Part shown: positions 3-12,105 of the stretch, one piece after another | Position numbering within the stretch: the stretch's first letter is position 1 | Layout: each line of letters begins with the position of its first letter | NCBI GenBank assembly: GCA_021790615.1 | Contig: JAJYGW010000131.1 | Span: 1-12,105, forward strand | Reading direction: 5' to 3' | DNA: 12,105 nt | DNA from: Actinomycetes bacterium | GTDB taxonomy: Bacteria; Actinomycetota; Acidimicrobiia; Acidimicrobiales; JAKAOS01 | Made by a program: the position numbers and the translations under genes | The notes under the pieces: generated by a model | Databases searched by the model: none | What the model saw: the letters and a program-made list of their open reading frames with translations, nothing else | Told to the model about the DNA's origin: nothing

Positions 3-524
3 ATTGGCGACTTCTCTCGGCCCCGCATCGGGTGGCGCCGGCAACGCGCCGCTGAGGCAGCGAAGGGGACAGCCGCGGGGGCGGGGACGGTGCAAGCCGC
101 GGGGGCGGGGACGGTGCAAGCCGCGGCGAACCGCAACCGCGGCTCGTTGCAGCTTCGCCACGTCGATGCCGGCTCCTGCAATGGCTGTGAGCTGGAGATT
201 GCCTCGATCTTCTCTCCCACCTACGATGCCGAGCAGTTCGGCATCCGTCTCGAGGCGTCTCCCCGGCACGCAGACGGCCTCCTAGTGACCGGCCCTGTCA
301 CTGTCAACATGTCCGGACCGCTTCGCAAGACCTTCGATGCGGTCCCAAGACCTCGGATCGTTATCGCGCTCGGTGACTGTGCCCGAGACTGCGGCGTGTT
401 CAAGGGTGCCTACGGCGTCGAGGGTGCCGTCGGAGATGTCGTCCCGGTCGACCTCGAGATCCCGGGCTGCCCGCCGCACCCGGCGGCGATCGTCGCGGCC
501 CTGCGCACAGTGGCAGGCACGTGA
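3..524 (+). CDS. hyfI: HyfI/NuoB-like 4Fe-4S small subunit, 5' partial
   Basis: Electron-transfer subunit of a group 4 hydrogenase-like / complex I-like membrane complex, at the cytoplasmic face. It should carry one [4Fe-4S] cluster next to the large subunit. Seen: DAGSCNGCE (Cys codons at 177 and 186), SPRHAD, a VTGPVT loop, GDCARDCG (Cys codons at 378 and 390) and PGCPP (Cys codon at 468). In HycG, HyfI and NuoB these segments supply the four cluster ligands; here they are the codons at 177, 186, 378 and 468. The Cys at 390 sits where relatives have Gly. The frame is open to the window edge, so the real start may be upstream. A GTG at 90 would give 144 residues but lies inside a tandem repeat and has no clear ribosome site. 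The stop overlaps the next start as GTGA. In gene order it matches Rv0082 of M. tuberculosis. Family certain, N-terminus uncertain. Confidence 0.88.
   Translation: MGDFSRPRIGWRRQRAAEAAKGTAAGAGTVQAAGAGTVQAAANRNRGSLQLRHVDAGSCNGCELEIASIFSPTYDAEQFGIRLEASPRHADGLLVTGPVTVNMSGPLRKTFDAVPRPRIVIALGDCARDCGVFKGAYGVEGAVGDVVPVDLEIPGCPPHPAAIVAALRTVAGT
71..118 (+). repeat. Tandem 24-bp repeat in the small-subunit gene
   Basis: Two perfect adjacent copies (71-94 and 95-118), followed by the first 8 bases of a third. The unit reads AGCCGCGGGGGCGGGGACGG then TGCA. In frame it encodes an Ala/Gly/Thr/Val/Gln octapeptide, giving a low-complexity segment just before the conserved iron-sulfur domain. It looks like a recent in-frame slippage or recombination product in an N-terminal tail that is poorly conserved in the family. 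Confidence 0.93.
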
Positions 525-2527
525 GCGCGGCCCTGCTCGCGGCCGCCGCCATGCTCGGGCTGCTGGCCTCGGGGGCCGGCGCCGTGGCCCCGGTCAAGCT
601 GAGAGCAGTACTCACGGTCATCCTCACCGTCGCGGCGTGCGGGTGCGCCGGAGCGGCGGCCGTCGAAGTGCTCAGTACGGGACACACTGCGGTGATCGAG
701 ACCGGCTCGCTCATGCCGCTCAGCAGATTCGCCCTCGGGCTCGACGCCCTCGGCGCCCTTTTCACCTTGGTCGCGGCAAGTATCGGAGCCTGCGCGATGG
801 TCTTCCGCCTCGGCTACGCCGGCCACGGCCTGTCCAGCCGGACCGCCTCGAGCACGCTGCCCCTCTTCGTCACGACTCTCCTGCTCGTGCCCGCTGCCTC
901 GAATGTCACGACTTTCCTCTACCTCTGGGAGCTCATGGCGCTCACCTCCCTCGTCCTCGTGCTGACCGACCATCGCCATCGCCCCGAGGTGCAGGTTGCC
1001 GGTCAGTGGTACGCCGTCATGACTCAGCTCGGAGCCGCAGCCATCCTCATCGGCCTGGTCCTGCTTGCTACCAGGGCAGGCAGCCAGTCCTTCACGGCCA
1101 TCGCTGAGCGCGGTCCACGCCTCACGCCCTCGGTGCGCGACACGGTCTTCCTGCTCACCCTCGGGGGCTTTGCCCCCAAAGCCGGTGCGGTCCCGCTCCA
1201 CGTCTGGCTGCCGCGAGCCCACCCGGAGGCTCCCGGCCCTGTCTCGGCCCTCATGTCGGCCGCGATGGTGAACCTCGGCATCTATGGGATCGTCCGCGTA
1301 GGCGATGGGCTGCTCGGCGGCGGCCCGGCCTGGTGGTGGCTCCTCGTGATGGCCGTCGGAGCGCTATCCGCCCTCTTCGGGTCGCTCCACTCGGCGACGA
1401 GCACCGACCTCAAGCGGCTACTGGCCTACTCGACGACCGACAACGTCGGACTGATGCTGCTTGGCGTAGGCGCGTCCGGTCTCTTCGCCGCGACCGGGCA
1501 CCGGACCCTCGCTCTGGTCGCGCTCGCGGCGGCACTGCTTCACGTCGCCTTCCACGCCGTATTCAAGGGCTCGCTCTTCCTCTCCGCCGGTTCTGTCCAA
1601 CAAGCGACGGGCACCCGCGACCTTGACAGCCTGGGTGGTCTTCTCCGGGCCATGCCAGTGAGCGCGCCGATCTTCATCGTGGGTGCTCTCGCGATCGCGG
1701 CTCTGCCGCCGCTGTGCGGTTTCGTCAGCGAGTGGCTCCTCCTGCAGGCAATGCTGCACGGGCTCCCGTCGAGCAACACGGCAATCGCCATCGCCATGCC
1801 GGTAGGAGTCGGCGCGCTCGCTCTCACCGGGGGCCTGACGGCGGCGACCTTCGTCAAGGCAGTCGGGATCGGGTTTCTTGGCCGGCCCCGAAACGAAGCA
1901 GTCGCCACGGCCGGCGACGTTCCAAGGTCGATGGCGACTGGAGCGGGTATCTTGGCAACAGCCTGCCTGGTACTAGGCGTCGCACCCTTCCTCGTCCTCC
2001 CGGCGGTGCTCGACGCCGCGAGGACGGCCACAGGCACAACTATCGCCGACCCACTGTCAAGAGGCTGGAGTCTCGGCCTTTCGGGCGTGCATGGGGCCCT
2101 GGCCCCGGGTCTGATAGCCGCCGGCCTCACGCTCGCCATCGGCCTCGTCGCAGGCGCGAGACGCCTGGCCCAGGTCCGGGCGCTCCGCCATGTCGAAGCC
2201 TGGGGATGTGGCAGGGAGATACAGACAGCACGGATGCAGTACACGGCCACATCGTTCGCCGAGCCCCTTATCCGCGTCTTCGACGACGTCCTGCAGCCTG
2301 TCCATGACCTTGACATCAGTCACACTGCCGAGTCTCGCTACTACGTCGAGTCAGCCAGGTTCCATACCTCGCTCGAGGACGGTTTCGAGCGCCACCTGTA
2401 CCGACCCGCAACCTCGATGCTCCGGTGGTGGGGCGCCCTCACGAGACGAATCCCGAACGGAAGCGTCCACCGCTACCTGGCGTTCGGCTTCGTGGCACTC
2501 GTACTCGTCCTTGTCGTGGTGGCATAG
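521..2527 (+). CDS. hyfB: HyfB-like membrane subunit (NuoL/M/N antiporter family)
   Basis: Large polytopic membrane subunit, 668 residues, close to the about 670 of E. coli HyfB. Family members form proton-translocating channels in the membrane arm of complex I and group 4 hydrogenases. Seen: many hydrophobic helices; the NuoL/M/N core with WELMAL (Glu137), PKAGAVPLHVWLPRAHPEAP (Lys220), the DLKRLLAYST loop and HAVFKGSLFL (Lys349). These charged residues correspond to the helix-buried Glu/Lys residues linked to proton transfer in this family. The C-terminal part (CGREIQTARMQYTATSFAEP and on) is typical of HyfB/HycC rather than NuoL. The GTG start overlaps the upstream stop by 4 nt, which implies translational coupling. 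Corresponds in order to Rv0083. The pumping role is inferred from the family. Confidence 0.93.
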   Translation: MSAALLAAAAMLGLLASGAGAVAPVKLRAVLTVILTVAACGCAGAAAVEVLSTGHTAVIETGSLMPLSRFALGLDALGALFTLVAASIGACAMVFRLGYAGHGLSSRTASSTLPLFVTTLLLVPAASNVTTFLYLWELMALTSLVLVLTDHRHRPEVQVAGQWYAVMTQLGAAAILIGLVLLATRAGSQSFTAIAERGPRLTPSVRDTVFLLTLGGFAPKAGAVPLHVWLPRAHPEAPGPVSALMSAAMVNLGIYGIVRVGDGLLGGGPAWWWLLVMAVGALSALFGSLHSATSTDLKRLLAYSTTDNVGLMLLGVGASGLFAATGHRTLALVALAAALLHVAFHAVFKGSLFLSAGSVQQATGTRDLDSLGGLLRAMPVSAPIFIVGALAIAALPPLCGFVSEWLLLQAMLHGLPSSNTAIAIAMPVGVGALALTGGLTAATFVKAVGIGFLGRPRNEAVATAGDVPRSMATGAGILATACLVLGVAPFLVLPAVLDAARTATGTTIADPLSRGWSLGLSGVHGALAPGLIAAGLTLAIGLVAGARRLAQVRALRHVEAWGCGREIQTARMQYTATSFAEPLIRVFDDVLQPVHDLDISHTAESRYYVESARFHTSLEDGFERHLYRPATSMLRWWGALTRRIPNGSVHRYLAFGFVALVLVLVVVA

Positions 2528-3500: not shown

Positions 3501-4156
3501 GCGGGCAACCGTTCGCCTCGGGTCTAACCCTCGCGGTAGGCGCGGTGCTCGTCTGTGCCGTCGCGGTGCTCTGGCTCTCGTCCCTCGCCTCTGTCATCCG
3601 TGCCGTCTCGTTGCAAGGGATCGCCCTCGGCACCGTCGCCATCGTCCTCGGCCTGCACCTCCACGACCCCGCGCTCATCGCGACGGCGGCGGTCGTCATC
3701 GTCGTTAAGGGGCTCGCCATCCCCATGCTGTTGCGCCACGTCACCGGCGACCAGCCCCTGGAGCGAGAAACCCGCCCCCTCGTCAATGTTCCAGCCTCCC
3801 TCGTGGCTTCAGCCGCGGTGATATTCATCGCCTTCGCGCGCACCCGCGGGATCGCCCGTTACGTTGGCACCACCGCCGGGTCCTTGGTACCGGTCGGGTT
3901 CGCGGCGCTGCTCGTGGGTTACTTCGTGCTTGTGTCCAAGAGGCGCCCGGTCTTCCAGATGGTCGGGATCCTCCTCGTCGACAACGGCATCTCACTCGTC
4001 GCGTTCCTCGTGACAGCCGGGGTGCCGTTTCTCATCGAGCTGGGAGTGTCTTTGGACGTGTTGCTCGCAGTTGTCGTCCTCGGCGTGCTCGCGGTCCGGC
4101 TACGCACCGACTTCGGCGACTTGGACCTCGACGATCTGCAGGAGCTGCACGACTGA
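3497..4156 (+). CDS. hyfE: HyfE-like membrane subunit
   Basis: Small integral membrane subunit, 219 residues (E. coli HyfE is about 216). HyfE-type proteins contain a NuoK-like part and sit in the membrane arm between the larger subunits. Seen: seven or so hydrophobic helices, the segment VVIVVKGLAIPMLLRH with an intramembrane Lys, and the family-typical RPVFQMVGILLVDNGISLVA. The C-terminus is hydrophilic and acidic (DFGDLDLDDLQELHD). GTG at 3497 is the start because it overlaps the hyfC stop as GTGA and gives the right length. Corresponds to Rv0085 (HycP) by order. Role inferred from family and context; no catalytic function is expected. Confidence 0.88.
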   Translation: MSGQPFASGLTLAVGAVLVCAVAVLWLSSLASVIRAVSLQGIALGTVAIVLGLHLHDPALIATAAVVIVVKGLAIPMLLRHVTGDQPLERETRPLVNVPASLVASAAVIFIAFARTRGIARYVGTTAGSLVPVGFAALLVGYFVLVSKRRPVFQMVGILLVDNGISLVAFLVTAGVPFLIELGVSLDVLLAVVVLGVLAVRLRTDFGDLDLDDLQELHD

Positions 4157-5685
4157 TGGCTCTCATCGGCCTCCTCCTTCTCCCCTTGCTCGGCGCGGGT
4201 GTCTTAGCTATTGGCCGAGCACGCCCGGCGGCGGCGTACACCGCCGTGGCCACCAACTGCGCCGTGCTGGTGCTCGCCATCGGCGTGGCTGTGCGCGAGA
4301 GGGAGATCGGCCCGCTGTCGGGCGCCTACGGTGTGCTACGGGCCGATGCCCTGAGCGCTTTCATGGCTCTGGTCATCGGCGCCATCGCGTGTCTGGCTTC
4401 GTGGATCGGCGTGCGCATGATCGCGGCCGATCTGGCCGAGCAGCGATGCAGCCGGGCGCGGGCGACGACCTACCTCGTGCTCGTGCAGGGTTTCGTCGCC
4501 GCGATGCTTCTCGCCGTTCTCGCCGCCAACGTGGGCGTGCTGTGGGTAGCTATCGAGGCGACGACGATCGTGACGACCTTTCTCGTCGGACACAGACGGA
4601 CGAAAGGGGCGCTCGAGGCGTCCTGGAAGTACATCGTCATCTGCTCGGTCGGGATCGCACTTGCTTTCCTCGGAACGGTCCTCGTCTACCTGGCCGCGAT
4701 GCACACCGGAGGACACTCAGCCAGCGCTCTCGATTGGACTTCTCTCAGGTCGCGCGCCTCCCATCTCGATCCTGCGGTCATGCGCGTCGCCTTCGCCCTG
4801 CTGGTGCTCGGCTATGGGACCAAGGTGGGGCTCGTGCCGATGCACAGCTGGCTCCCCGATGCCCACAGCCAGGCACCCGCACCCGTATCAGCCCTCATGT
4901 CGGGCGTCTTGTTGACGGTGGCGTTCTATGCCATCTTGCGCTTCAAGGCGGTCATGGACGTGGCGGTCGGCCCGAGCTACTCACGGGCGCTGCTCGTGAC
5001 GGTCTCGCTGCTATCACTTGCCTTCGCCGCGTCGCTCCTCCTCACCCAGCGCGACTACAAGCGCATGCTCGCCTACCACAGCATCGAGCACATGGGTCTC
5101 ATCGCCCTCGGTGCAGCTGCCGGCATCCCTCTCGCGATCGCAGCCGTGCTTCTCCACATCCTTGGTCACGGACTGGCCAAGAGCGTCCTATTCCTGGCCT
5201 CGGGCGAGATCATGGCGGTCGAGGGTACGAGCCGGATCGACGGCGTGCATGCCCTCCTCGCGCGCCGACCGGCCCTTGGGGGCATCTTCGGCGTCGGCCT
5301 CCTGGCGCTGCTCGGCCTTCCGCCGTTCAGCCTGTTCACGAGCGAGCTCCTGATGATCCGTGCGGAGTTCGAGGTCGGACTTGGCTGGGCCGCCGCAGCC
5401 GCCATGGTCGCAATGGTCGTGATCTTCGTCGCCGTCGCGGCCCATGCCCGTCACATGCTCTTCGGCCCGGCCGCCGGAGCCCGAGCCGGGACTGGGACGG
5501 ACACCGGAGCTGGTGCTGGGGCGGGGGACGAGTCGGGCGGGATCGGAAGCGCCGCGCCAGGCGTGTCCTCGTCTCTCGTCACAGCTCCGCTCGTCGCCGG
5601 CCTTGTCGCCTGCGGCCTCATCGGTGTCTTCGCCTGGCCTCTCACGGGTCTCCTGTCGGCGGCCGCGCACGTGGTGGCCCGGTGA
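4156..5685 (+). CDS. hyfF: HyfF-like membrane subunit (NuoL/M/N antiporter family)
   Basis: Second antiporter-like subunit, 509 residues (E. coli HyfF is about 526). Seen: WVAIEATTIVTTF (Glu134), GTKVGLVPMHSWLPDAHSQA (Lys223), QRDYKRMLAYHSIEHMGL, and HGLAKSVLFLASGE (Lys342). These are the conserved charged positions of the NuoL/M/N channel family and the HyfF/HycQ form of the loops. Near the C-terminus, codons from about 439 to 465 encode a Gly/Ala/Thr-rich stretch (GTGTDTGAGAGAGDESGG) between the last helices, probably an expanded loop. The ATG overlaps the hyfE stop (TGATG) and the stop overlaps the hyfG GTG, so translation is coupled on both sides. With HyfB this gives the complex two antiporter-like modules. 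Ion specificity is not visible from sequence. Confidence 0.93.
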   Translation: MALIGLLLLPLLGAGVLAIGRARPAAAYTAVATNCAVLVLAIGVAVREREIGPLSGAYGVLRADALSAFMALVIGAIACLASWIGVRMIAADLAEQRCSRARATTYLVLVQGFVAAMLLAVLAANVGVLWVAIEATTIVTTFLVGHRRTKGALEASWKYIVICSVGIALAFLGTVLVYLAAMHTGGHSASALDWTSLRSRASHLDPAVMRVAFALLVLGYGTKVGLVPMHSWLPDAHSQAPAPVSALMSGVLLTVAFYAILRFKAVMDVAVGPSYSRALLVTVSLLSLAFAASLLLTQRDYKRMLAYHSIEHMGLIALGAAAGIPLAIAAVLLHILGHGLAKSVLFLASGEIMAVEGTSRIDGVHALLARRPALGGIFGVGLLALLGLPPFSLFTSELLMIRAEFEVGLGWAAAAAMVAMVVIFVAVAAHARHMLFGPAAGARAGTGTDTGAGAGAGDESGGIGSAAPGVSSSLVTAPLVAGLVACGLIGVFAWPLTGLLSAAAHVVAR

Positions 5686-7274
5686 CCACCATCGGCGAGC
5701 ACGTGGAGTTGGACCTCGTGCCGGCCGGCCATCACCGCCGCGCGGCTGTGGTGACACGCGACCAGCTCCTCGCGGCCGCCACGGCCCTGCTCGGGGCGGG
5801 CATGCGCCTTGCCCTTGTGTCGGGACACGACGACGGCACCTCGATGCGAGCGGTCTACCTGTTCACCTCCGGGCCACCTGGCAGAAGGGTCGAGCTGCAC
5901 CTCGATATCGACCGGTCGAGCCCACAGGTGCCGAGCCTCGCCGGCGTCTCGTTTCCCGCGAGCCGCTTCGAGCGAGAGATGCGCGATCTCTTCGGGATCG
6001 AGCCCATCGCGCATCCGCAACCGCGCAGGCTCGTGCTCCACCAGCACTGGCCGGCGAACTGGTTCGCGCTGCGCCATGGAACCGGACACCGGCCTGAGAT
6101 GGTCGCAGACGCCGGAGGGTTTCCCTTCATTCCCGTCAAAGGTGCAGGTGTCTACGAAATCCCGGTCGGTCCCGTGCATGCAGGGCTCATCGAGCCCGGC
6201 CACTTCCGGTTCTGGGTAGTGGGCGAAACGATCCTCCGCATGAAGGCCCGTCTCTGGTACCTGCACAAGGGGATAGAGCGCCTTTTCGAGGGCAGGGACG
6301 TCAGCTCGGGCCTCGAGCTTGCCGAGCGGATCTCGGGCGACACCGCCGTTGGCCATAGCCTCGCCTACTGCCTGGCGATCGAGGATGCGTTGTCGATCGA
6401 GATTCCTCCCGCCGCCCGGGTGTCCCGGTCGATCTTGTTGGAGCTCGAGCGCCTCTACAACCATGTCGCAGACATCGGCGCTCTCTGCAACGACGTGGGC
6501 TTTGCTCTCGCCAACGCCCGGGCGCTCGGCCTTCGCGAGCAGCTCTTGCAGCTCAACGGGAAGGTCACCGGACACCGGCTCCTCCGTAGCGGCATCCGGC
6601 CCGGAGGTGCTCGCCTGCAACGCCTGCCCGGGGCCGGAGAGCTGAGCGAGGTGAGCGAGCAGTTCGAAGACCTCATCGAGCTCGCCACCTCAAATGCCCT
6701 TGTGATGGAGCGTTTCACCGGCACAGCGGTGCTGGACGCAGCTCATGGGGCGGAGCTGGGCGTTGTCGGCGTGGCTGGCCGAGCCTCAGGCGTGGGTTGC
6801 GACTGCAGGGTGGCTCACCCGTGGGTGGAAGCCGGAGCCGAGTTCTCCGAGACAGTGCGCAGCGACGGGGACGTGCGCGCTCGCTTCGAGGTGCGCGTCG
6901 GCGAAGTTCGTACATCTCTGGCGCTGCTCTCGGAGATGCTCGGCCGTGCGGGAGAGCTCGACAGCGTCGCTGAGATCGGCGAGATAGTCGGGAGTGGCGA
7001 GCCGAGCGAGCGGCGCAGTGGGGTGAGGACCGGGCTGCGCAGTGGGGAGCCGAGCGAGCGGCGCAGTGGGGTGGGGATCACCGAAGCGTGGCGCGGGGCC
7101 GTGGTGCACCGCGTCGAGCTCGGTCCTGACCGGCGCCTTACCCGGGTGAAGGTGGTCGATCCATCGTTCCTCAACTGGCCCGCCGTCCCGGTCTCGCTGG
7201 CAGACACGATCGTGCCGGACTTTCCTCTGGCAAACAAGAGCTTCAACCTCTCTTATGCCGGAAACGACCTGTGA
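5682..7274 (+). CDS. hyfG: HyfG-like NuoC-NuoD fusion, [NiFe] ligands missing
   Basis: Large peripheral subunit, about 530 residues. The N-terminal part is NuoC-like, with FEREMRDLFGI starting at Phe96. The C-terminal part is NuoD/hydrogenase large-subunit-like, with VGPVHAGLIEPGHFRF near 162-177, WYLHKGIERLFEG, the HSLAYCLAIE helix and LLELERLYNHVADIG. In true group 4 hydrogenases, four cysteines in ERxCGxC and DPCxxC hold the Ni-Fe. Here they read ERISGDTAVGH (215-225) and DPSFLNW (493-499), with no cysteine in either, so a Ni-Fe site cannot form in the known way. The NuoD-like ISGDT replaces the first motif cleanly, and the C-terminal signature DFPLANKSFNLSYAGNDL is intact, so this is not a frameshift. 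A four-unit repeat is inserted at about 437-468. GTG at 5682 overlaps the hyfF stop. Best described as an Ehr-type large subunit of unknown substrate. Confidence 0.92.
   Translation: MTTIGEHVELDLVPAGHHRRAAVVTRDQLLAAATALLGAGMRLALVSGHDDGTSMRAVYLFTSGPPGRRVELHLDIDRSSPQVPSLAGVSFPASRFEREMRDLFGIEPIAHPQPRRLVLHQHWPANWFALRHGTGHRPEMVADAGGFPFIPVKGAGVYEIPVGPVHAGLIEPGHFRFWVVGETILRMKARLWYLHKGIERLFEGRDVSSGLELAERISGDTAVGHSLAYCLAIEDALSIEIPPAARVSRSILLELERLYNHVADIGALCNDVGFALANARALGLREQLLQLNGKVTGHRLLRSGIRPGGARLQRLPGAGELSEVSEQFEDLIELATSNALVMERFTGTAVLDAAHGAELGVVGVAGRASGVGCDCRVAHPWVEAGAEFSETVRSDGDVRARFEVRVGEVRTSLALLSEMLGRAGELDSVAEIGEIVGSGEPSERRSGVRTGLRSGEPSERRSGVGITEAWRGAVVHRVELGPDRRLTRVKVVDPSFLNWPAVPVSLADTIVPDFPLANKSFNLSYAGNDL
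6989..7084 (+). repeat. Four tandem 24-bp units within hyfG
   Basis: Four adjacent 24-bp units at 6989, 7013, 7037 and 7061. GCGCAGTGGGG begins units 2, 3 and 4. Units 1 and 3 share GAGCCGAGCGAGCG, so the array looks like an ABAB duplication and contains a 27-bp perfect direct repeat (6999-7025 and 7047-7073). In frame the units read GSGEPSER, RSGVRTGL, RSGEPSER and RSGVGITE. They lie between the helical domain and the conserved TEAWRG segment, a place where a surface loop can be lengthened. Confidence 0.9.
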
Positions 7275-7368
7275 TCGCGACACGGTTGGTACTTTCGTTG
7301 AAGTGGCTGCTTCGCTGCAGCGCGGGCGCGAGCTCTCACCGGCGCGGTCAGGAGGTTTCTGCGGGATC
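7275..7368 (+). promoter_or_regulatory. Leader between hyfG and the ArsR-type gene
   Basis: A 94-bp gap, the largest in this gene run. It holds AGGAGG at 7350-7355, a near-perfect Shine-Dalgarno 13 nt before the ATG at 7369, which is longer than usual spacing; no closer in-frame start exists. A perfect 10-bp palindrome CGCTGCAGCG lies at 7313-7322 and could be an operator half, but this is speculative. No convincing -35/-10 pair is visible. The regulator may be read through from the operon, have its own promoter, or both. Confidence 0.45.
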
Positions 7369-7827
7369 ATGACGACGCCCGCCTACCCCACCAGCCATGC
7401 CTATCCCATCTACCGGGTCAAGGCGGACTTCTTCAAGGCCCTCGGCCATCCGGCGCGTATTCGTATCCTCGAGGTGCTGAGAGACGGTGAGCGACAAGTA
7501 GCACGTCTGATCCCCGAAGTCGGGATCGAGCCATCGCACCTCTCCCAGCAGCTCGGGGTGATGCGGCGCGCGAATCTGATCCAGGCTCGAAAGTCCGGGT
7601 CGAGCGTGTACTACTCGGTTGGGGACCCGTCGATATTCGAGCTGCTCGAGGTCGCCAAGCGAATCATCACCTCGTCGCTCGCCGACACCCAGGAGCTCTT
7701 GGCGCAGCTCGCCGATACCGACCACTCCGTGGCTGTCCCGTCGGGGCGGGCGGGGCGCTCGGCGCAGGCGGCGCAGGGGGGAGTCGGGCAGGCCAGGGCC
7801 GCCATTTTTGGCGAACCTCGTGCCTGA
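7369..7827 (+). CDS. ArsR-family winged-helix regulator, Rv0081-like
   Basis: Cytoplasmic DNA-binding repressor of the ArsR/SmtB fold, 152 residues. Seen: YRVKADFFKALGHPARIRIL (15-34), a recognition helix around SHLSQQLGVMRRANLI (56-71), and a wing ending SSVYYSVGD. These match the pattern I recall for M. tuberculosis Rv0081, a hypoxia-linked regulator that sits next to the same set of hydrogenase-like genes, so control of the preceding operon is a reasonable inference. There is no cysteine anywhere in the protein, so the usual Cys-based metal or arsenite sensing is excluded and the signal is unknown. The C-terminal 35 or so residues are Gly/Ala/Arg-rich and probably disordered; Rv0081 is shorter. 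ATG at 7369 was chosen for its ribosome site and its position just before the conserved domain; an ATG at 7255 inside hyfG lacks both. Confidence 0.87.
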   Translation: MTTPAYPTSHAYPIYRVKADFFKALGHPARIRILEVLRDGERQVARLIPEVGIEPSHLSQQLGVMRRANLIQARKSGSSVYYSVGDPSIFELLEVAKRIITSSLADTQELLAQLADTDHSVAVPSGRAGRSAQAAQGGVGQARAAIFGEPRA

Positions 7828-8573: not shown

Positions 8574-8710
8574 GCTGTTCCTTTCGAACGACCCGGGAGT
8601 GCCGACTCCCTTCCGATATCCTCATCCTACCCGGTGAGGCGCACCGATGAGATGGAGGAGCGGATCACACCGGTGACCTGGAGTCCTTGGGGCGAGCGCA
8701 GGCGTCGTTG
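8574..8710. promoter_or_regulatory. Divergent intergenic region with a small inverted repeat
   Basis: This gap must hold the promoters of the minus-strand secreted gene and the plus-strand YcaQ-type gene. It contains a perfect inverted repeat GGGAGT-GCCG-ACTCCC at 8595-8610, which would lie in the 5' leader of the secreted gene as a hairpin or act as an operator. A TAGGAT-like -10 is readable on the minus strand near 8626-8631, but no matching -35 is evident. GGAGGAG at 8654-8660 has no in-frame start at proper distance for the YcaQ-type gene. Confidence 0.4.
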
Positions 8711-9913
8711 ATGCCAACCGGCGCACCGGAGCCCATCTCAGCCCGAGACGCGCGCCGCATCGCGCTCGCCGGCCAGGGTCTCCTTGGATCGCGCCTCGCG
8801 ACCAACCCAGCCGGGATGCTCAGGCGACTTCGAGCCGTGCAACTCGACACGATCTCTGTCCTCGCGCGCTCGCACCAGCTAGTGGCCTACGCCCGGCTCG
8901 GACCCGTCGAAGCCCAGAAGGTCGACAGCGCCTACTGGGCCGGTCCACCCTTTGGTGCGTTCGAGTACTGGGCGCATGCCGCCTGCATCCTGCCGATGGA
9001 GGACTGGCCCTTCTACGACTTCCAGCGCCAGGCCCGGCGCGAGCGCGGGCACCGGTGGCACAGGCTCGACAACGCCGATCAGGCCTGCAAGATCATCCTC
9101 GACCGGCTCCGCTCAGATGGCCCGCTCACAGCCAACGAGCTCGGTGGCGCGAAAAGAGGTGGCCCCTGGTGGGACTGGTCAGATACCAAGATCGCCGTGG
9201 AGTGGCTCCTCGATATTGGTGAGGTCGTGTGCGCGAAGCGGCGGGGGTTTCAAAGGGTTTACGACCTGCCCGAACGGGCAGTCCCGGGCGAGCTGCTCGA
9301 GACCAGGATCGAGCCGGACGATCAGATCCGCCACCTGCTGCGACAAGCGGCCGGAGCCCTCGGTGTCGCCACCACGCGAGACCTCGCAAGCTATACCGGA
9401 GTCAAGTCGGCGGTCGTCAACAGGCTTGCCGGCGATCTTGGGCTTGCGCCCGTAGCGATTGAGGGCTGGCGCAAGCCGGCATGGGCCGTGCCGGAAATGC
9501 TCCAGGCCGGTACAGCCGGGCTCCGTACCCGACCAACGCTGCTCTCTCCGTTCGACTCGCTCGTCTGGGATCGGGATCGAGTGGAGCGGCTTTTTCGGTT
9601 CCGCCACCGACTCGAGGCCTACACTCCCAGCTCAAAGCGCATATACGGCTACTTCGCGATGCCAGTGCTCGTCGGTGATCGCCTAGTCGGCAGGGTTGAT
9701 CCGGGGCGCGACGGCAGGACGCTCGTGGCCAAGAGCGTCCATCTCGACCCCTCCGCCTCCGCTGCGACAGTGCGCGGCCTCGCCGGTGCGCTGCTGAGGG
9801 CGGCCTCCTGGGTCGACTCCGCCGACATCAGGGTCGAGAATGTGACCCCCGAGGACCGGCGGGCAGAGATGCTCGACGCGGTGCGCTCGGCGAAACGACA
9901 GTGTTCGCCATGA
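8711..9913 (+). CDS. ycaQ: YcaQ/AlkX-family winged-helix DNA glycosylase
   Basis: About 400 residues, matching E. coli YcaQ (AlkX, about 410) along its length. E. coli YcaQ removes bulky N-alkyl lesions and unhooks DNA interstrand crosslinks; Streptomyces AlkZ is the related self-resistance enzyme in a natural-product cluster. Seen: N-terminal SARDARRIALAGQGLL; the catalytic Q-Phi-D motif as VQLDT (Gln44, Asp46); FEYWAHAACILP; GPWWDWSDTK; KRRGFQRVYDLPERAVP; LLSPFDSLVWDRDRVERLF from about 277; YTPSSKRIYGYFAMP; and LVGRVD. The Q-Phi-D form points to the broad-repair YcaQ/AlkX branch rather than the Q-Phi-Q AlkZ branch. ATG at 8711 is preferred; a TTG at 8687 in the same frame adds eight residues and neither has a good ribosome site. 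No biosynthetic genes are adjacent, so a housekeeping repair role is likelier than self-resistance. Confidence 0.9.
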   Translation: MPTGAPEPISARDARRIALAGQGLLGSRLATNPAGMLRRLRAVQLDTISVLARSHQLVAYARLGPVEAQKVDSAYWAGPPFGAFEYWAHAACILPMEDWPFYDFQRQARRERGHRWHRLDNADQACKIILDRLRSDGPLTANELGGAKRGGPWWDWSDTKIAVEWLLDIGEVVCAKRRGFQRVYDLPERAVPGELLETRIEPDDQIRHLLRQAAGALGVATTRDLASYTGVKSAVVNRLAGDLGLAPVAIEGWRKPAWAVPEMLQAGTAGLRTRPTLLSPFDSLVWDRDRVERLFRFRHRLEAYTPSSKRIYGYFAMPVLVGDRLVGRVDPGRDGRTLVAKSVHLDPSASAATVRGLAGALLRAASWVDSADIRVENVTPEDRRAEMLDAVRSAKRQCSP

Positions 9914-10021
9914 TGGCTGCCCCCGACTACCGTGAGGGCGTATCGGCGCTGCGGGAGAAGCGACAGCCGCGTTTCTAGCGCTCGGCCACCGCGGAGCTAC
10001 ATCGCTCAAGGAGATAGATCG
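9914..10021 (+). promoter_or_regulatory. Leader with strong ribosome site for the surface-protein gene
   Basis: 108-bp gap. AAGGAG at 10008-10013 lies 8 nt before the ATG at 10022, the best-placed Shine-Dalgarno in the window. No clear promoter or terminator hairpin can be picked out by eye. Confidence 0.6.
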
Positions 10022-12105
10022 ATGCGTGGATCACTTCGTAACGCCGCCCGTTCCTCGGGAGCTGCAGCGAGGGCTGCCTCGGGAGCCGCAGCGAGGAGGG
10101 CCGCCGCGGGGGCCGCCCGCGCAGCGGTGGCCGCAGCGCTCGTCTCGAGCCTGGTCCTGTTCGCCGCGTCGCCCGCCGTGGCGTCGCCCGCCCCGGCCGC
10201 CAGGCCAGGCGCCGGCACCGCCAGCCCGACCGGATCCGCGACGGTGCCCACCGGCAACGACATCTCTTTCCCCCAGTGCGGAGGGCAGTACCCGGTCGGC
10301 CAGGCCTTCGGGATAGTGGGCGTCAACAACGGCCGGCCGCCGGGGCTCAACCCGTGCCTGGGCCCGGATCCGACAACCTCCAGCTACACCACGAGCGAGC
10401 TCTACTGGGCGGTCGCGTCTTCCACAGGTGCTACAGCCCAGCCCCGCGCGTCGCTGTATGTGAACACAGCGGATCCAGGTGACGTCTACGCCGGCTCCCC
10501 GATCACCGACTGGCCCACGTCGGGCAGCACGCCTGCGGGGATATGCACGACCACGGCAGTGAAGACGTCAACGGGCACACAGACCCTCGGCGCGAACACA
10601 CCGGCATGCGCATGGCAGTACGGCCACAACAAGGCCGTGCAGGATGCCGCGTGGCTGACGACGACAGCCGCCGCGATCAACGCAGAAACGCCCCCGGTCT
10701 CGGTCCCAAGCTCTGTAGGGAGCTACCCGTGGTGGCTCGACGTCGAGACCACCAACACCTGGTTGACAGGCACGAACGGGCTGGCGATGAACGCCGCCGT
10801 CCTCGAGGGCATCCTGTCCGGACTCGAGCAGGCGGGCGCGAGCGCGCCCGGAGAGGTGGGTGTCTACTCGACGACGACCCAGTGGAACGACATCACCGGC
10901 GGCAGCCCGCTGCCGTCGAGCTCGCTCTACGGGCTCCCCACCTGGCTTCCAGGTGCCGGATCGCTGAGCGGGGCGGCCGCGAACTGCGCGCAACCGTCCT
11001 TCACCGGCGGAGTCGTGCAGCTCACCCAGTGGGTCGGGACCACCTATGACTCTGACTACTCCTGTGTCGCCCCCGGGACCGGGCCGACCCCGACCCCGGC
11101 ACCGGGGTCGAGCCTGCCGGTGGTGAGCTATGTATCGCCGAGCAGCGGCCCTGTTACGGGCGGCACCACGGTCACGGTGGTGGGCACCGGGCTGTTGGGG
11201 GCCACATCGGTCGAGTTCGGCCTCTCCGGAGCCACGAGCTACTCGGTCGACTCGGCCACCGAGATCACCGCGACTAGCCCGGCCGAACCAGCCGGGCCGG
11301 TATATGTGGCGGTAACAACCGCGGCGGGCACATCTGTGGCGACTGCCGCTGACCAGTTCACCTATCTCGCGCCTGGAGTGCCCGCAACCTCGGGCTACTA
11401 CCCGCTCACCCCGAGCCGGATCTGCGATACGAGACCCGGCAATCCGAGTGGCCTCAGCGGAACAGCGCTCTCGAACTGCGAGAACAAGGCCCCGGGCCCC
11501 GGCACCTCGCTCGACGTCGAGGTCGCGGGCCTTGGCGGGGTCCCCGCGGGTGCGAGCGCCGTCGCACTCGACGTCGTAGCTGTCGACCCGAGCGCATCTG
11601 GGTACCTGACGGTGTTCCCGACAGGTGCAGCGCCACCCACGGCATCCAGCATGAACTTCGTCGCCAACTCACCCCCCAAGGCCAACCTCGTGATCGTGGC
11701 CCTGCCCGCATCGGGCGATGTCTCGATCTTCAACTCGGCCGGCACCACCCAGGTCGTCGTCGACGTCGAGGGCTACGTCGCCCCGGTGACGACGACGGGG
11801 CAGGGATCGACAGTCACCTTCGACCCGGCAAGGATCTGTGACACGAGAGCCGGCCAACCATCCAACCCCTGTACCGGGCAGGCTCCCAAATCGGGCGGCG
11901 CTTTCGACGTCCCCATCCTCGGTCGCGCCTCGATCCCCTCTTCCGGCGTCGAGGCCGTGGTCGTCACGATCACGGCGATCGATCCGAGCGCGCCCGGCTA
12001 CTTGACGGCCTTCCCAGCTGGGGGGACCACGCCGACCTCGTCGGTCGTCAACTACTCGACCGGCGTGACAGTCGCCAACTCGGCGATACGCACCATCGGG
12101 GACAA
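10022..12105 (+). CDS. Secreted GH25-like / IPT-TIG / repeat surface protein, 3' partial
   Basis: An uninterrupted frame of at least 694 codons running off the window. Domains: a long Arg/Ala-rich signal peptide (seven Arg before a hydrophobic core at about 35-49; AVA before a likely cut at 54/55). Next comes a domain resembling glycoside hydrolase family 25: NDISFPQCG with Asp80, FGIVGVNNGRPP, LYVNTADPG, WWLDVETTNTW with Asp240 and Glu242, and VGVYSTTTQW. GH25 muramidases use an Asp at the N-terminal strand and an Asp-x-Glu. Then a Thr/Pro linker and an IPT/TIG domain (about 366-449, VSYVSPSSGPVTGGTTVTVVGTG), and two copies of a beta-type repeat each starting R-I-C-D-T-R (Arg466, Arg604). 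Cysteines recur in the mature part, so disulfides are plausible outside the cell. Likely a cell-wall-associated protein; enzyme activity is inferred from weak similarity and not certain. Start supported by AAGGAGAT. Confidence 0.85.
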   Translation, partial: MRGSLRNAARSSGAAARAASGAAARRAAAGAARAAVAAALVSSLVLFAASPAVASPAPAARPGAGTASPTGSATVPTGNDISFPQCGGQYPVGQAFGIVGVNNGRPPGLNPCLGPDPTTSSYTTSELYWAVASSTGATAQPRASLYVNTADPGDVYAGSPITDWPTSGSTPAGICTTTAVKTSTGTQTLGANTPACAWQYGHNKAVQDAAWLTTTAAAINAETPPVSVPSSVGSYPWWLDVETTNTWLTGTNGLAMNAAVLEGILSGLEQAGASAPGEVGVYSTTTQWNDITGGSPLPSSSLYGLPTWLPGAGSLSGAAANCAQPSFTGGVVQLTQWVGTTYDSDYSCVAPGTGPTPTPAPGSSLPVVSYVSPSSGPVTGGTTVTVVGTGLLGATSVEFGLSGATSYSVDSATEITATSPAEPAGPVYVAVTTAAGTSVATAADQFTYLAPGVPATSGYYPLTPSRICDTRPGNPSGLSGTALSNCENKAPGPGTSLDVEVAGLGGVPAGASAVALDVVAVDPSASGYLTVFPTGAAPPTASSMNFVANSPPKANLVIVALPASGDVSIFNSAGTTQVVVDVEGYVAPVTTTGQGSTVTFDPARICDTRAGQPSNPCTGQAPKSGGAFDVPILGRASIPSSGVEAVVVTITAIDPSAPGYLTAFPAGGTTPTSSVVNYSTGVTVANSAIRTIGD
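10053..10096 (+). repeat. 24-bp-spaced direct repeat in the signal peptide region
   Basis: CCTCGGGAGCTGCAGCGAGG at 10053-10072 recurs with one mismatch at 10077-10096, offset exactly 24 bp. In frame it gives the related octapeptides SSGAAARA and ASGAAARR, which lengthen the basic n-region of the export signal. Confidence 0.88.
11393..12105 (+). repeat. Two protein-level beta repeats (R-I-C-D-T-R type)
   Basis: The module starting YYPLTPSRICDTR (Arg466) is followed 414 bp later by a second starting VTFDPARICDTR (Arg604). Shared landmarks are a Cys soon after the start, a hydrophobic strand with AVDPSASGYLTVFPTG in copy 1 and AIDPSAPGYLTAFPAG in copy 2, and an N-rich turn. Copy 1 closes with VVVDVEGYVAP; copy 2 is cut by the window edge. 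DNA identity is much lower than protein similarity, so the duplication is old. More copies may follow. Confidence 0.8.

What the first reader, a model, noticed from the sequence alone, without database searches (positions are those of the whole stretch)
5682..7274. Hydrogenase-like complex whose catalytic subunit has lost all four [NiFe] cysteines
Seen: the two ligand motifs read ERISGDTAVGH (215-225) and DPSFLNW (493-499). Known: group 4 hydrogenases need Cys pairs at both places. All surrounding family signatures and the other five subunits are intact and the operon is tightly coupled, so the complex is probably functional but works on something other than H2 via Ni-Fe. The first motif has become NuoD-like (ISGDT). 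With no NuoE/F/G and no formate dehydrogenase in view, the electron donor and acceptor are unknown. This is the main candidate for poorly described biology here.
Basis: partly seen in the sequence, partly recalled or inferred. Interest (0 to 1): 0.8.

Follow-up and report, generated by a model that had tools for sequence, protein, structure and literature searches.

The report
Hydrogenase-like complex without a hydrogenase site
A bacterium related to the Acidimicrobiales carries a membrane machine built like a hydrogen-making enzyme and like respiratory complex I, but its metal site was lost long ago; in some relatives most ligands of the last iron-sulfur cluster are gone too while the machine is still strongly preserved, which suggests it moves ions by some means nobody has yet worked out.

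Summary
Motif 1 is right (RxCGxC became R-I-S218-G-D-T221). The second ligand pair is not DPSFLNW (493-499). It is the C-terminus, SFNLSYAGNDL (520-530), which aligns without gaps to HycE SLDPCYSCTDR, so Cys became S524 and G527. DPSFLNW matches NuoD's xPSFxNL, so the NuoD-like motif is this one, not ISGDT.

[quoted passage not shown] The altered pocket is old and nearly invariant from Actinomycetota to Omnitrophota, and proteins end where a mature hydrogenase would. The operon is a six-gene set (I-B-C-E-F-G) plus an ArsR-type regulator; no redox partner recurs beside it in the loci examined, and membrane-arm channel residues are kept.

New here: in two separate actinobacterial lineages the small subunit has lost three of four ligands of its only [4Fe-4S] cluster (A/G-C-A-S and T-C-D-D), yet evolves under purifying selection (omega 0.05-0.10) in full operons. 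The window keeps all four ligands. I favour an ion-translocating complex whose cluster is optional. Interest 0.55.

The parts
3..524 (+). Small subunit (HyfI/NuoB-like), 5' end outside the window; four cluster ligands C59, C62, C126, C156 (codons 177-179, 186-188, 378-380, 468-470) all present
   Evidence: PF01058 97 bits; ligand columns CCCC like HyfI and HycG
521..2527 (+). HyfB-like antiporter-type membrane subunit; E137, K220, K298, K349, E404 kept
   Evidence: PF00361 180.6 bits; PRK06521 550 bits, below its cut-off 667; key residues
2520..3500 (+). HyfC/NuoH-like membrane subunit (start approximate); conserved acidic chain E152, E204, D211, E218, E224, E229
   Evidence: PF00146 138 bits; key residues
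3497..4156 (+). HyfE-like membrane subunit
   Evidence: PRK11492 72 bits, below its cut-off 136; no Pfam hit
4156..5685 (+). HyfF-like antiporter-type membrane subunit; E134, K223, K302, H312, K342, E397 kept
   Evidence: PF00361 163.8 bits; key residues
5682..7274 (+). Ehr-type large subunit (HycE/NuoCD-like, 30-kDa and 49-kDa domains), 530 aa
6324..6356 (+). Former first ligand motif, ERISGDTAVGH (215-225): Cys positions are S218 and T221
7158..7178 (+). DPSFLNW (493-499): conserved motif, NOT the ligand site; NuoD xPSFxNL-like
7239..7271 (+). True former second ligand motif, SFNLSYAGNDL (520-530): Cys positions are S524 and G527; the protein ends here with no tail
6993..7071 (+). 24-bp tandem repeat inside the gene, in a variable linker of the large subunit; the nearest genome has 16 more residues here
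7369..7827 (+). ArsR/SmtB-type regulator without cysteines (read), next to the operon in many relatives
   Evidence: NF033788 78.9 bits over cut-off 55, scanned as 7357-7824; neighbour cluster in 52 of 81 loci

Best explanation
An Ehr-type complex: a relative of group 4 [NiFe] hydrogenases and complex I that carries no [NiFe] site. Subunits B, C, E and F form an ion-conducting membrane arm; G and I form a small cytoplasmic head. In the ancestor the [NiFe] ligands were replaced by a conserved set of mainly oxygen-bearing residues (S218-G-D220-T221 ... S524-Y-x-G-x-D529, with H166, H174, H225); that they line one pocket is inferred from the hydrogenase alignment, not modelled. I think the conserved job is ion translocation (H+ or a cation/H+ exchange) gated or driven by an event in that pocket and relayed through the acidic chain of subunit C to the B and F channels, with the single [4Fe-4S] cluster of subunit I optional: present in the window, dispensable in the family. 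Shown: cysteine loss at all four columns, conservation of the new residues, no recurrent partner gene in the fetched loci, conserved channel residues, loss of three cluster ligands in two separate lineages under purifying selection. Inferred: ion translocation and its direction, the ligand or substrate of the pocket, and that the cluster is optional in the window's own lineage.
For: Ligand columns and ungapped C-terminal alignment. Motifs near-invariant in a clade of 95; the clade is one group of 99 sequences with support 1.0 in the tree. Proteins of 92 of 94 loci end exactly at ..DL; the other two are a run of unknown bases and a shortened frame. Among 81 loci the six operon genes and the regulator are the only clusters shared across genera, apart from a generic ABC-transporter ATPase cluster in 7 loci; the remaining clusters are all Cryobacterium. 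The same six genes are listed on Rhodococcus, Methylocalor, Rhizobium and Paraburkholderia plasmids. Channel residues kept in nearly all of 77-83 homologues. Cluster ligands lost in L083/L189, L178, L179 (A/G-C-A-S) and L231, L232 (T-C-D-D), in separate parts of the tree, omega of subunit I 0.05-0.10, the B, C and F key residues kept there.
Against: The window and most relatives keep all four cluster ligands (C156 in 49 of 67 small subunits, the other three in 66-67 of 67), so a redox role in the window's lineage is quite possible. The two cluster-less lineages may have been repurposed. Some members of the wider group still carry a ferredoxin-type stretch in the small-subunit gene: L110-L113 from other phyla and L228-L230 in the phylum sample. 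In L231/L232 the HyfE residues E181 and D187 read Q and N. HyfF E397 is kept in 80 of 83 and HyfC E229 in 74 of 78. The window starts inside the small-subunit gene, so what lies upstream there was not seen. No biochemistry was available, and ion transport rests on homology only.
Confidence: 0.45

Rival explanations
1. Redox-driven pump: a soluble low-potential carrier (ferredoxin-like) docks on the small subunit, its [4Fe-4S] cluster passes electrons to an acceptor (quinone or other) bound in the vacated pocket, and this drives ion pumping as in complex I.
For: The window keeps all four cluster ligands and the conserved acidic chain. PMC6349859 suggests electron transfer to the membrane part and possible quinone reduction for Ehr, there with a formate dehydrogenase (passages). 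Some members have a ferredoxin-type CxxCxxCxxxC stretch in the small-subunit gene (L110-L113; L228-L230).
Against: No ferredoxin motif in the window, and no recurrent donor gene in the 81 loci; the quinone Tyr of NuoD is Gly219 here (role of that Tyr recalled); three ligands lost in two lineages with the operon kept.
Confidence: 0.38
2. It is still a hydrogenase or formate hydrogenlyase with unusual ligands, as database names suggest.
For: Named Ni,Fe-hydrogenase III large subunit in many source records; best structural match is formate hydrogenlyase HycE.
Against: All four Cys columns changed and no conserved Cys elsewhere; no C-terminal tail for protease processing; HypD not found in 5 of 10 carriers.
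Confidence: 0.02
3. Decaying relic of a hydrogenase operon without function.
For: Loss of [NiFe] ligands and, in two lineages, of cluster ligands.
Against: Omega 0.05-0.20 for the five genes tested (I, G, B, C, F) among the cluster-less Microbacteriaceae and 0.05-0.17 for six genes between L231 and L232; near-invariant motifs; intact operons across phyla.
Confidence: 0.03
4. A different catalytic reaction in the pocket, for example on a small carbon or sulfur compound, analogous to MBS, the sulfur-reducing complex related to MBH.
For: Conserved polar residues at the old site; a solved relative 6u8y_L matches the profile (its sulfur-reducing role is recalled).
Against: No substrate-linked neighbour gene recurs; too few ligands for a cluster to feed the site in two lineages.
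Confidence: 0.12

Closest known systems
Ehr (energy-converting hydrogenase-related) complexes of Sulfobacillus, comammox Nitrospira, Riflemargulisbacteria; Ehr of Geobacter
   Same: Group 4-like large subunit lacking the Ni-Fe ligand motifs (stated for the first three; passages), complex-I/Hyf-like membrane subunits; Geobacter Ehr has NuoL-like, HyfE-like, large and small subunits (passages)
   Different: No reference sequence from those papers was put in the tree. PMC6349859 proposes a formate dehydrogenase partner; no such partner recurs here. Loss of small-subunit cluster ligands is not mentioned in the passages I read.
Mycobacterium tuberculosis Rv0081-Rv0087 locus (hycD, hycP, hycQ, hycE)
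   Same: By its gene table a parallel layout: regulator, two oxidoreductase genes, hycD, hycP, hycQ, hycE, with rv0082-rv0087 regulated by rv0081 (PMC6901956 passages)
   Different: The regulator follows the operon in the window. The Rv0087 sequence was not fetched or aligned. The paper calls the locus a putative [NiFe]-hydrogenase complex.
E. coli formate hydrogenlyase (Hyc) and Hyf
   Same: Subunit-by-subunit homologues; HycE is the best solved match (TM 0.84)
   Different: HycE and HyfG have both Cys pairs and a C-terminal tail; Hyc/Hyf also have HycB/HyfA and HycF/HyfH, and hypA-E and hycI lie beside hyc
Complex I Q-module (NuoB, NuoCD, NuoH)
   Same: Fold and the xPSFxNL stretch; no Ni-Fe
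   Different: No Tyr at the quinone-site column, first motif unlike NuoD; no NuoE/F/G/I-type gene seen in the window

Membership tests
Group 4 [NiFe] hydrogenase | N-terminal RxCGxC ligand pair | tested here: not met
   S218 and T221
Group 4 [NiFe] hydrogenase | C-terminal DPCxxC ligand pair | tested here: not met
   S524 and G527
Group 4 [NiFe] hydrogenase | C-terminal extension for the maturation protease, as in HycE (not universal: the Cys-bearing L023 also ends at the motif) | tested here: not met
   the protein stops at the motif; 92 of 94 loci likewise, two incomplete frames
Group 4 [NiFe] hydrogenase | Maturation genes (HypD as marker) in the genome | tested here: inconclusive
   HypD found in 5 of 10 carriers, G001 among them, on another contig; drafts 85-97% complete; other hyp genes not searched
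Ehr complex | Large subunit of group 4 type lacking the Ni-Fe ligands | tested here: met
Ehr complex | Antiporter-like membrane subunits | tested here: met
   two PF00361 subunits, channel residues kept
Ehr complex | Grouping with published Ehr large subunits | not tested
   no reference sequence from the Ehr papers was included
Complex I NuoD | Quinone-site Tyr in the first motif (role recalled) | tested here: not met
   Tyr column of Thermus Nqo4 falls on G219
Small subunit with a proximal [4Fe-4S] cluster | Four Cys ligands | tested here: met
   window CCCC; not met in L083, L178, L179, L231, L232

The most novel reading that the evidence does not exclude
The family is a complex-I-like machine that needs no electron transfer at all: an ion translocator whose hydrogenase-derived head senses or turns over a ligand in an oxygen-rich pocket, so that the [4Fe-4S] cluster could be discarded in two lineages (in Microbacteriaceae apparently after the fourth ligand had gone first) without loss of the complex.
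Probability: 0.3. Interest if true: 0.88.

Novelty: new member of a known kind. Interest (0 to 1): 0.55.

Why it matters
How redox chemistry is coupled to ion pumping in complex I is a long-standing question. A natural homologue that keeps the membrane arm and the head but seems to have no redox centre would let the coupling be studied without electrons, and would say what the ancestral module does. It also bears on operons that are still annotated as hydrogenases or formate hydrogenlyases.

Tried and rejected
Displaced cysteines: rejected, none of the four remaining Cys is conserved. Recent mutation: rejected, the altered motifs are clade-wide. The 24-bp repeat as a genome-wide element: its 18-base core has no exact match in G001 or G035; G001 carries a different, longer variant. 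A single-sequence structure prediction failed, mean pLDDT 33.5; the alignment-based one is good except mainly for residues 148-151, 157-195, parts of 438-456, and 525-530, so pocket geometry cannot be read from it. Partner search by clustering flanking ORFs found no recurrent partner; formate dehydrogenase was not searched for by its own profile. The seventh-ranked shared cluster outside Cryobacterium is an ABC-transporter ATPase, taken as generic. Small subunits of L233-L235 (ligand columns C-C-P-S) are ambiguous, because Cys lie near the third column; not counted as cluster-less. For L233-L235 the B row picked different genes (in L233 the F gene again), so its B comparison (omega 0.6) was not used.

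Rows dropped: 12 loci (11 repeats of loci already in the set and one hydrogenase-type protein) before the alignment; 18 rows (NuoD, a second Cys-less group, L023 and L026) left out of the clade counts; 7 fragments or near-copies left out of the tree; 5 near-copies and 2 partial loci left out of the tree. Some parent nodes have low support (0.06-0.13), including the one above the T-C-D-D pair; that the two losses are separate rests on the clade of 28 (0.999) that holds the three A/G-C-A-S sequences and not that pair. One search lists 120 of 7942 hits, and only the 7998 candidates sharing most words were scored. The genome collection scan kept 80 of 91 confirmed relatives, so its loci are not a random sample. 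The counts include the query's own genome and use E <= 1e-60.

Literature: Marreiros et al. 2013, which PMC6349859 cites for Ehr, was seen only as a reference-list entry, not read and not looked up by id; He et al. 2011 (PMC3187382) is not held. In the listings and the passages that I opened, I saw no description of loss of the small-subunit cluster ligands; no paper was read whole.
Full report
What is there. The window holds, on the + strand, a tightly overlapping operon of six genes: a NuoB/HyfI-like small subunit whose 5' end lies outside the window, HyfB, HyfC (NuoH-like), HyfE, HyfF and a 530-residue HycE/NuoCD-like large subunit at 5682-7274, followed by an ArsR-type regulator. The nearest held genome, G001, shares all sampled 31-letter words and carries the same gene at 95-98% identity. 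The closest named relatives in the genome collection are Acidimicrobiales and other Actinomycetota.

The observation, corrected. The second motif was mis-read. HycE and HyfG have CRAATYANW where the window has VVDPSFLNW, and their SLDPCYSCTDR aligns without a gap with SFNLSYAGNDL at the very end of the window protein. A profile of 58 family members gives the same register against the solved E. coli HycE, and a Cys-bearing homologue in the same organism family, L023, has CMGC and CYAC at exactly these two places. The cysteines there became S524 and G527. DPSFLNW is the stretch that resembles NuoD (APSFVNL), while NuoD's first motif reads RMDY, with its Tyr on window Gly219.

Old, shared and under constraint. 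In 95 clade members (window included; 91 when identical C-terminal parts are merged) G219 is 92/92, D220 91/92, H225 91/92, S524 93/93, G527 93/93 and D529 93/93 of the sequences that cover the column. S218 itself varies (Ser 83, Ala 8, Thr 1) and T221 is Thr 65, Ser 24, Ala 3. Of the 94 loci, 92 end exactly at ..DL with no tail; the other two are a run of unknown bases and a shortened frame. HycE carries a further tail, which from general knowledge is removed by a protease after nickel insertion; L023, which has the Cys, also has none, so the missing tail alone proves little. The clade is a single group in the tree, 99 sequences with support 1.0, covering Actinomycetota, Acidobacteria, Omnitrophota, deltaproteobacteria and PVC bacteria. 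None of the window's four remaining Cys is conserved. In the family of G001 34 of 35 genomes have some match, and 14 have one of the window's type (at least 56% identical). HypD is found in 5 of 10 genomes that carry the operon; G001 has HypD on another contig and a separate hydrogenase-type gene on a third.

Organisation. Among 81 loci (window plus 80 of the 91 relatives confirmed) the clusters of flanking genes that recur across genera are the six operon genes, the regulator, and a generic ABC-transporter ATPase in 7 loci; all other clusters of five or more loci come from Cryobacterium alone. The regulator cluster is present in 52 of 81, many loci being cut by contig ends, and it lies either before or after the operon. 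A scan for a four-cysteine ferredoxin motif found nothing in the window. In the rest of the set it matched L045, L060 and L097 among Actinomycetota, none of them in an operon gene, L100 (two genes about 6 kb or more away), and L110-L113 from other phyla, where it lies in the small-subunit gene; in the G-genome stretches it matched L147 and L155, outside the operon. In a later sample L228-L230 also have it in the small-subunit gene. Plasmids of Rhodococcus, Methylocalor, Rhizobium and Paraburkholderia list the six genes together, Methylocalor with one small extra gene between F and G, and no maturation or ferredoxin gene listed beside them (that gene table is incomplete by its makers' account). 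Residues that line the proton paths of complex I and Hyf subunits (their role recalled) are kept: for example HyfB E137 75/75, K220 76/76, K349 77/77; HyfF E134 82/82, K223 82/82, E397 80/83; HyfC E152, E204, D211, E218 and E224 78/78, E229 74/78.

The unexpected part. The small subunit's single [4Fe-4S] cluster needs four cysteines, and the window has all four. In 67 small subunits the fourth is Ser in 18. In 11 Microbacteriaceae genomes where the gene was found (of 12 regions fetched; one lacked it), the fourth ligand is Ser or Asn in all 11, and in three (Agromyces bauzanensis, G224, G232) the first and third are gone as well, leaving A/G-C-A-S. In a sample of the phylum, two further genomes (G1085, G1044) have T-C-D-D. 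Of the 19 small subunits found in the 20 regions, 14 have CCCC, 2 T-C-D-D, and 3 C-C-P-S that I count as ambiguous. The three A/G-C-A-S sequences form a group with support 1.0 inside a clade of 28 (0.999) that does not hold the T-C-D-D pair, although the node above that pair is weak (0.13). These loci have all six genes and the B, C and F key residues listed; in L231/L232 HyfE E181 and D187 read Q and N, and no ferredoxin motif was found in them. Nei-Gojobori omega for the small subunit is 0.050-0.086 among the three Microbacteriaceae and 0.10 between L231 and L232; dS is about 0.9 to 2, so the values are approximate. The second cysteine is kept in every small subunit. The 8 Microbacteriaceae carriers tested show no other PF00346 protein, so this is the only complex-I-type large subunit found in them. 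The family is patchy: 12 of 398 Microbacteriaceae, 11 of 396 in the order and 15 of 396 in the phylum, each with the query's own genome counted, the last figure including a more distant Cys-less group.

Compared with what is known. Ehr complexes lacking the Ni-Fe ligands are in print: passages of PMC6349859, PMC4378227 and PMC10284858, the last two calling the function unknown; PMC7894505 reports more Geobacter Ehr subunits on formate than in the hydrogen-containing conditions and suggests a formate link (passages); HydDB trains its classifier to exclude Ehr (passage). The window is therefore a new member of a known kind. Its layout parallels the M. tuberculosis Rv0081-Rv0087 locus as tabled in PMC6901956 (passages), whose sequence I did not compare. 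In the listings and the passages opened I saw nothing on loss of the small-subunit cluster ligands, but the key Ehr paper (Marreiros 2013) was not read.

Noticed in passing
window 6993-7071; G001 C62 (L001): A 24-bp repeat array codes for a GEPSERRSGV-type insert in the large-subunit linker; G001 has 16 more residues with a different repeat variant.
   Followed up: partly
window 71-126: Perfect 24-bp tandem repeat (2.3 copies) in the small-subunit frame, upstream of its conserved part.
   Followed up: no
G001 C230 13979-15217 (L003, L146) and L020-L022, L024, L025, L027: A second, distinct Cys-less large-subunit group (ERVEG ... SFGxSxxG) occurs in the same organism family and, in G001, beside the window's type.
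   Followed up: partly
G022 C36 36512-37345 (L023): A group 4 relative in the same organism family that keeps both Cys pairs (CMGC and CYAC), useful as a Cys-bearing reference.
   Followed up: partly
L233, L234, L235 (G926, G916, G905): Small subunits with the fourth cluster ligand changed to Ser and displaced cysteines round the third; large subunits end in SQAACDG or SQGGCDG.
   Followed up: partly
G013 C230 and G014 C71: PF00374 proteins with both end regions, but no HypD match in either genome (85% and 97% complete).
   Followed up: no
E. coli K-12 HyfG (L144 9488-11155): Aligned to HycE it lacks a stretch of about 16 residues before RFDHPY.
   Followed up: no
L060 (Phytohabitans flavus) 9041-11419: The large-subunit frame stops at ..PDFP before the last conserved motif, while tblastn matched further; not examined.
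   Followed up: no
window 8687-9913 and 9932-12103: AlkZ-like DNA glycosylase and a long protein with an IPT/TIG domain, downstream of the operon.
   Followed up: no
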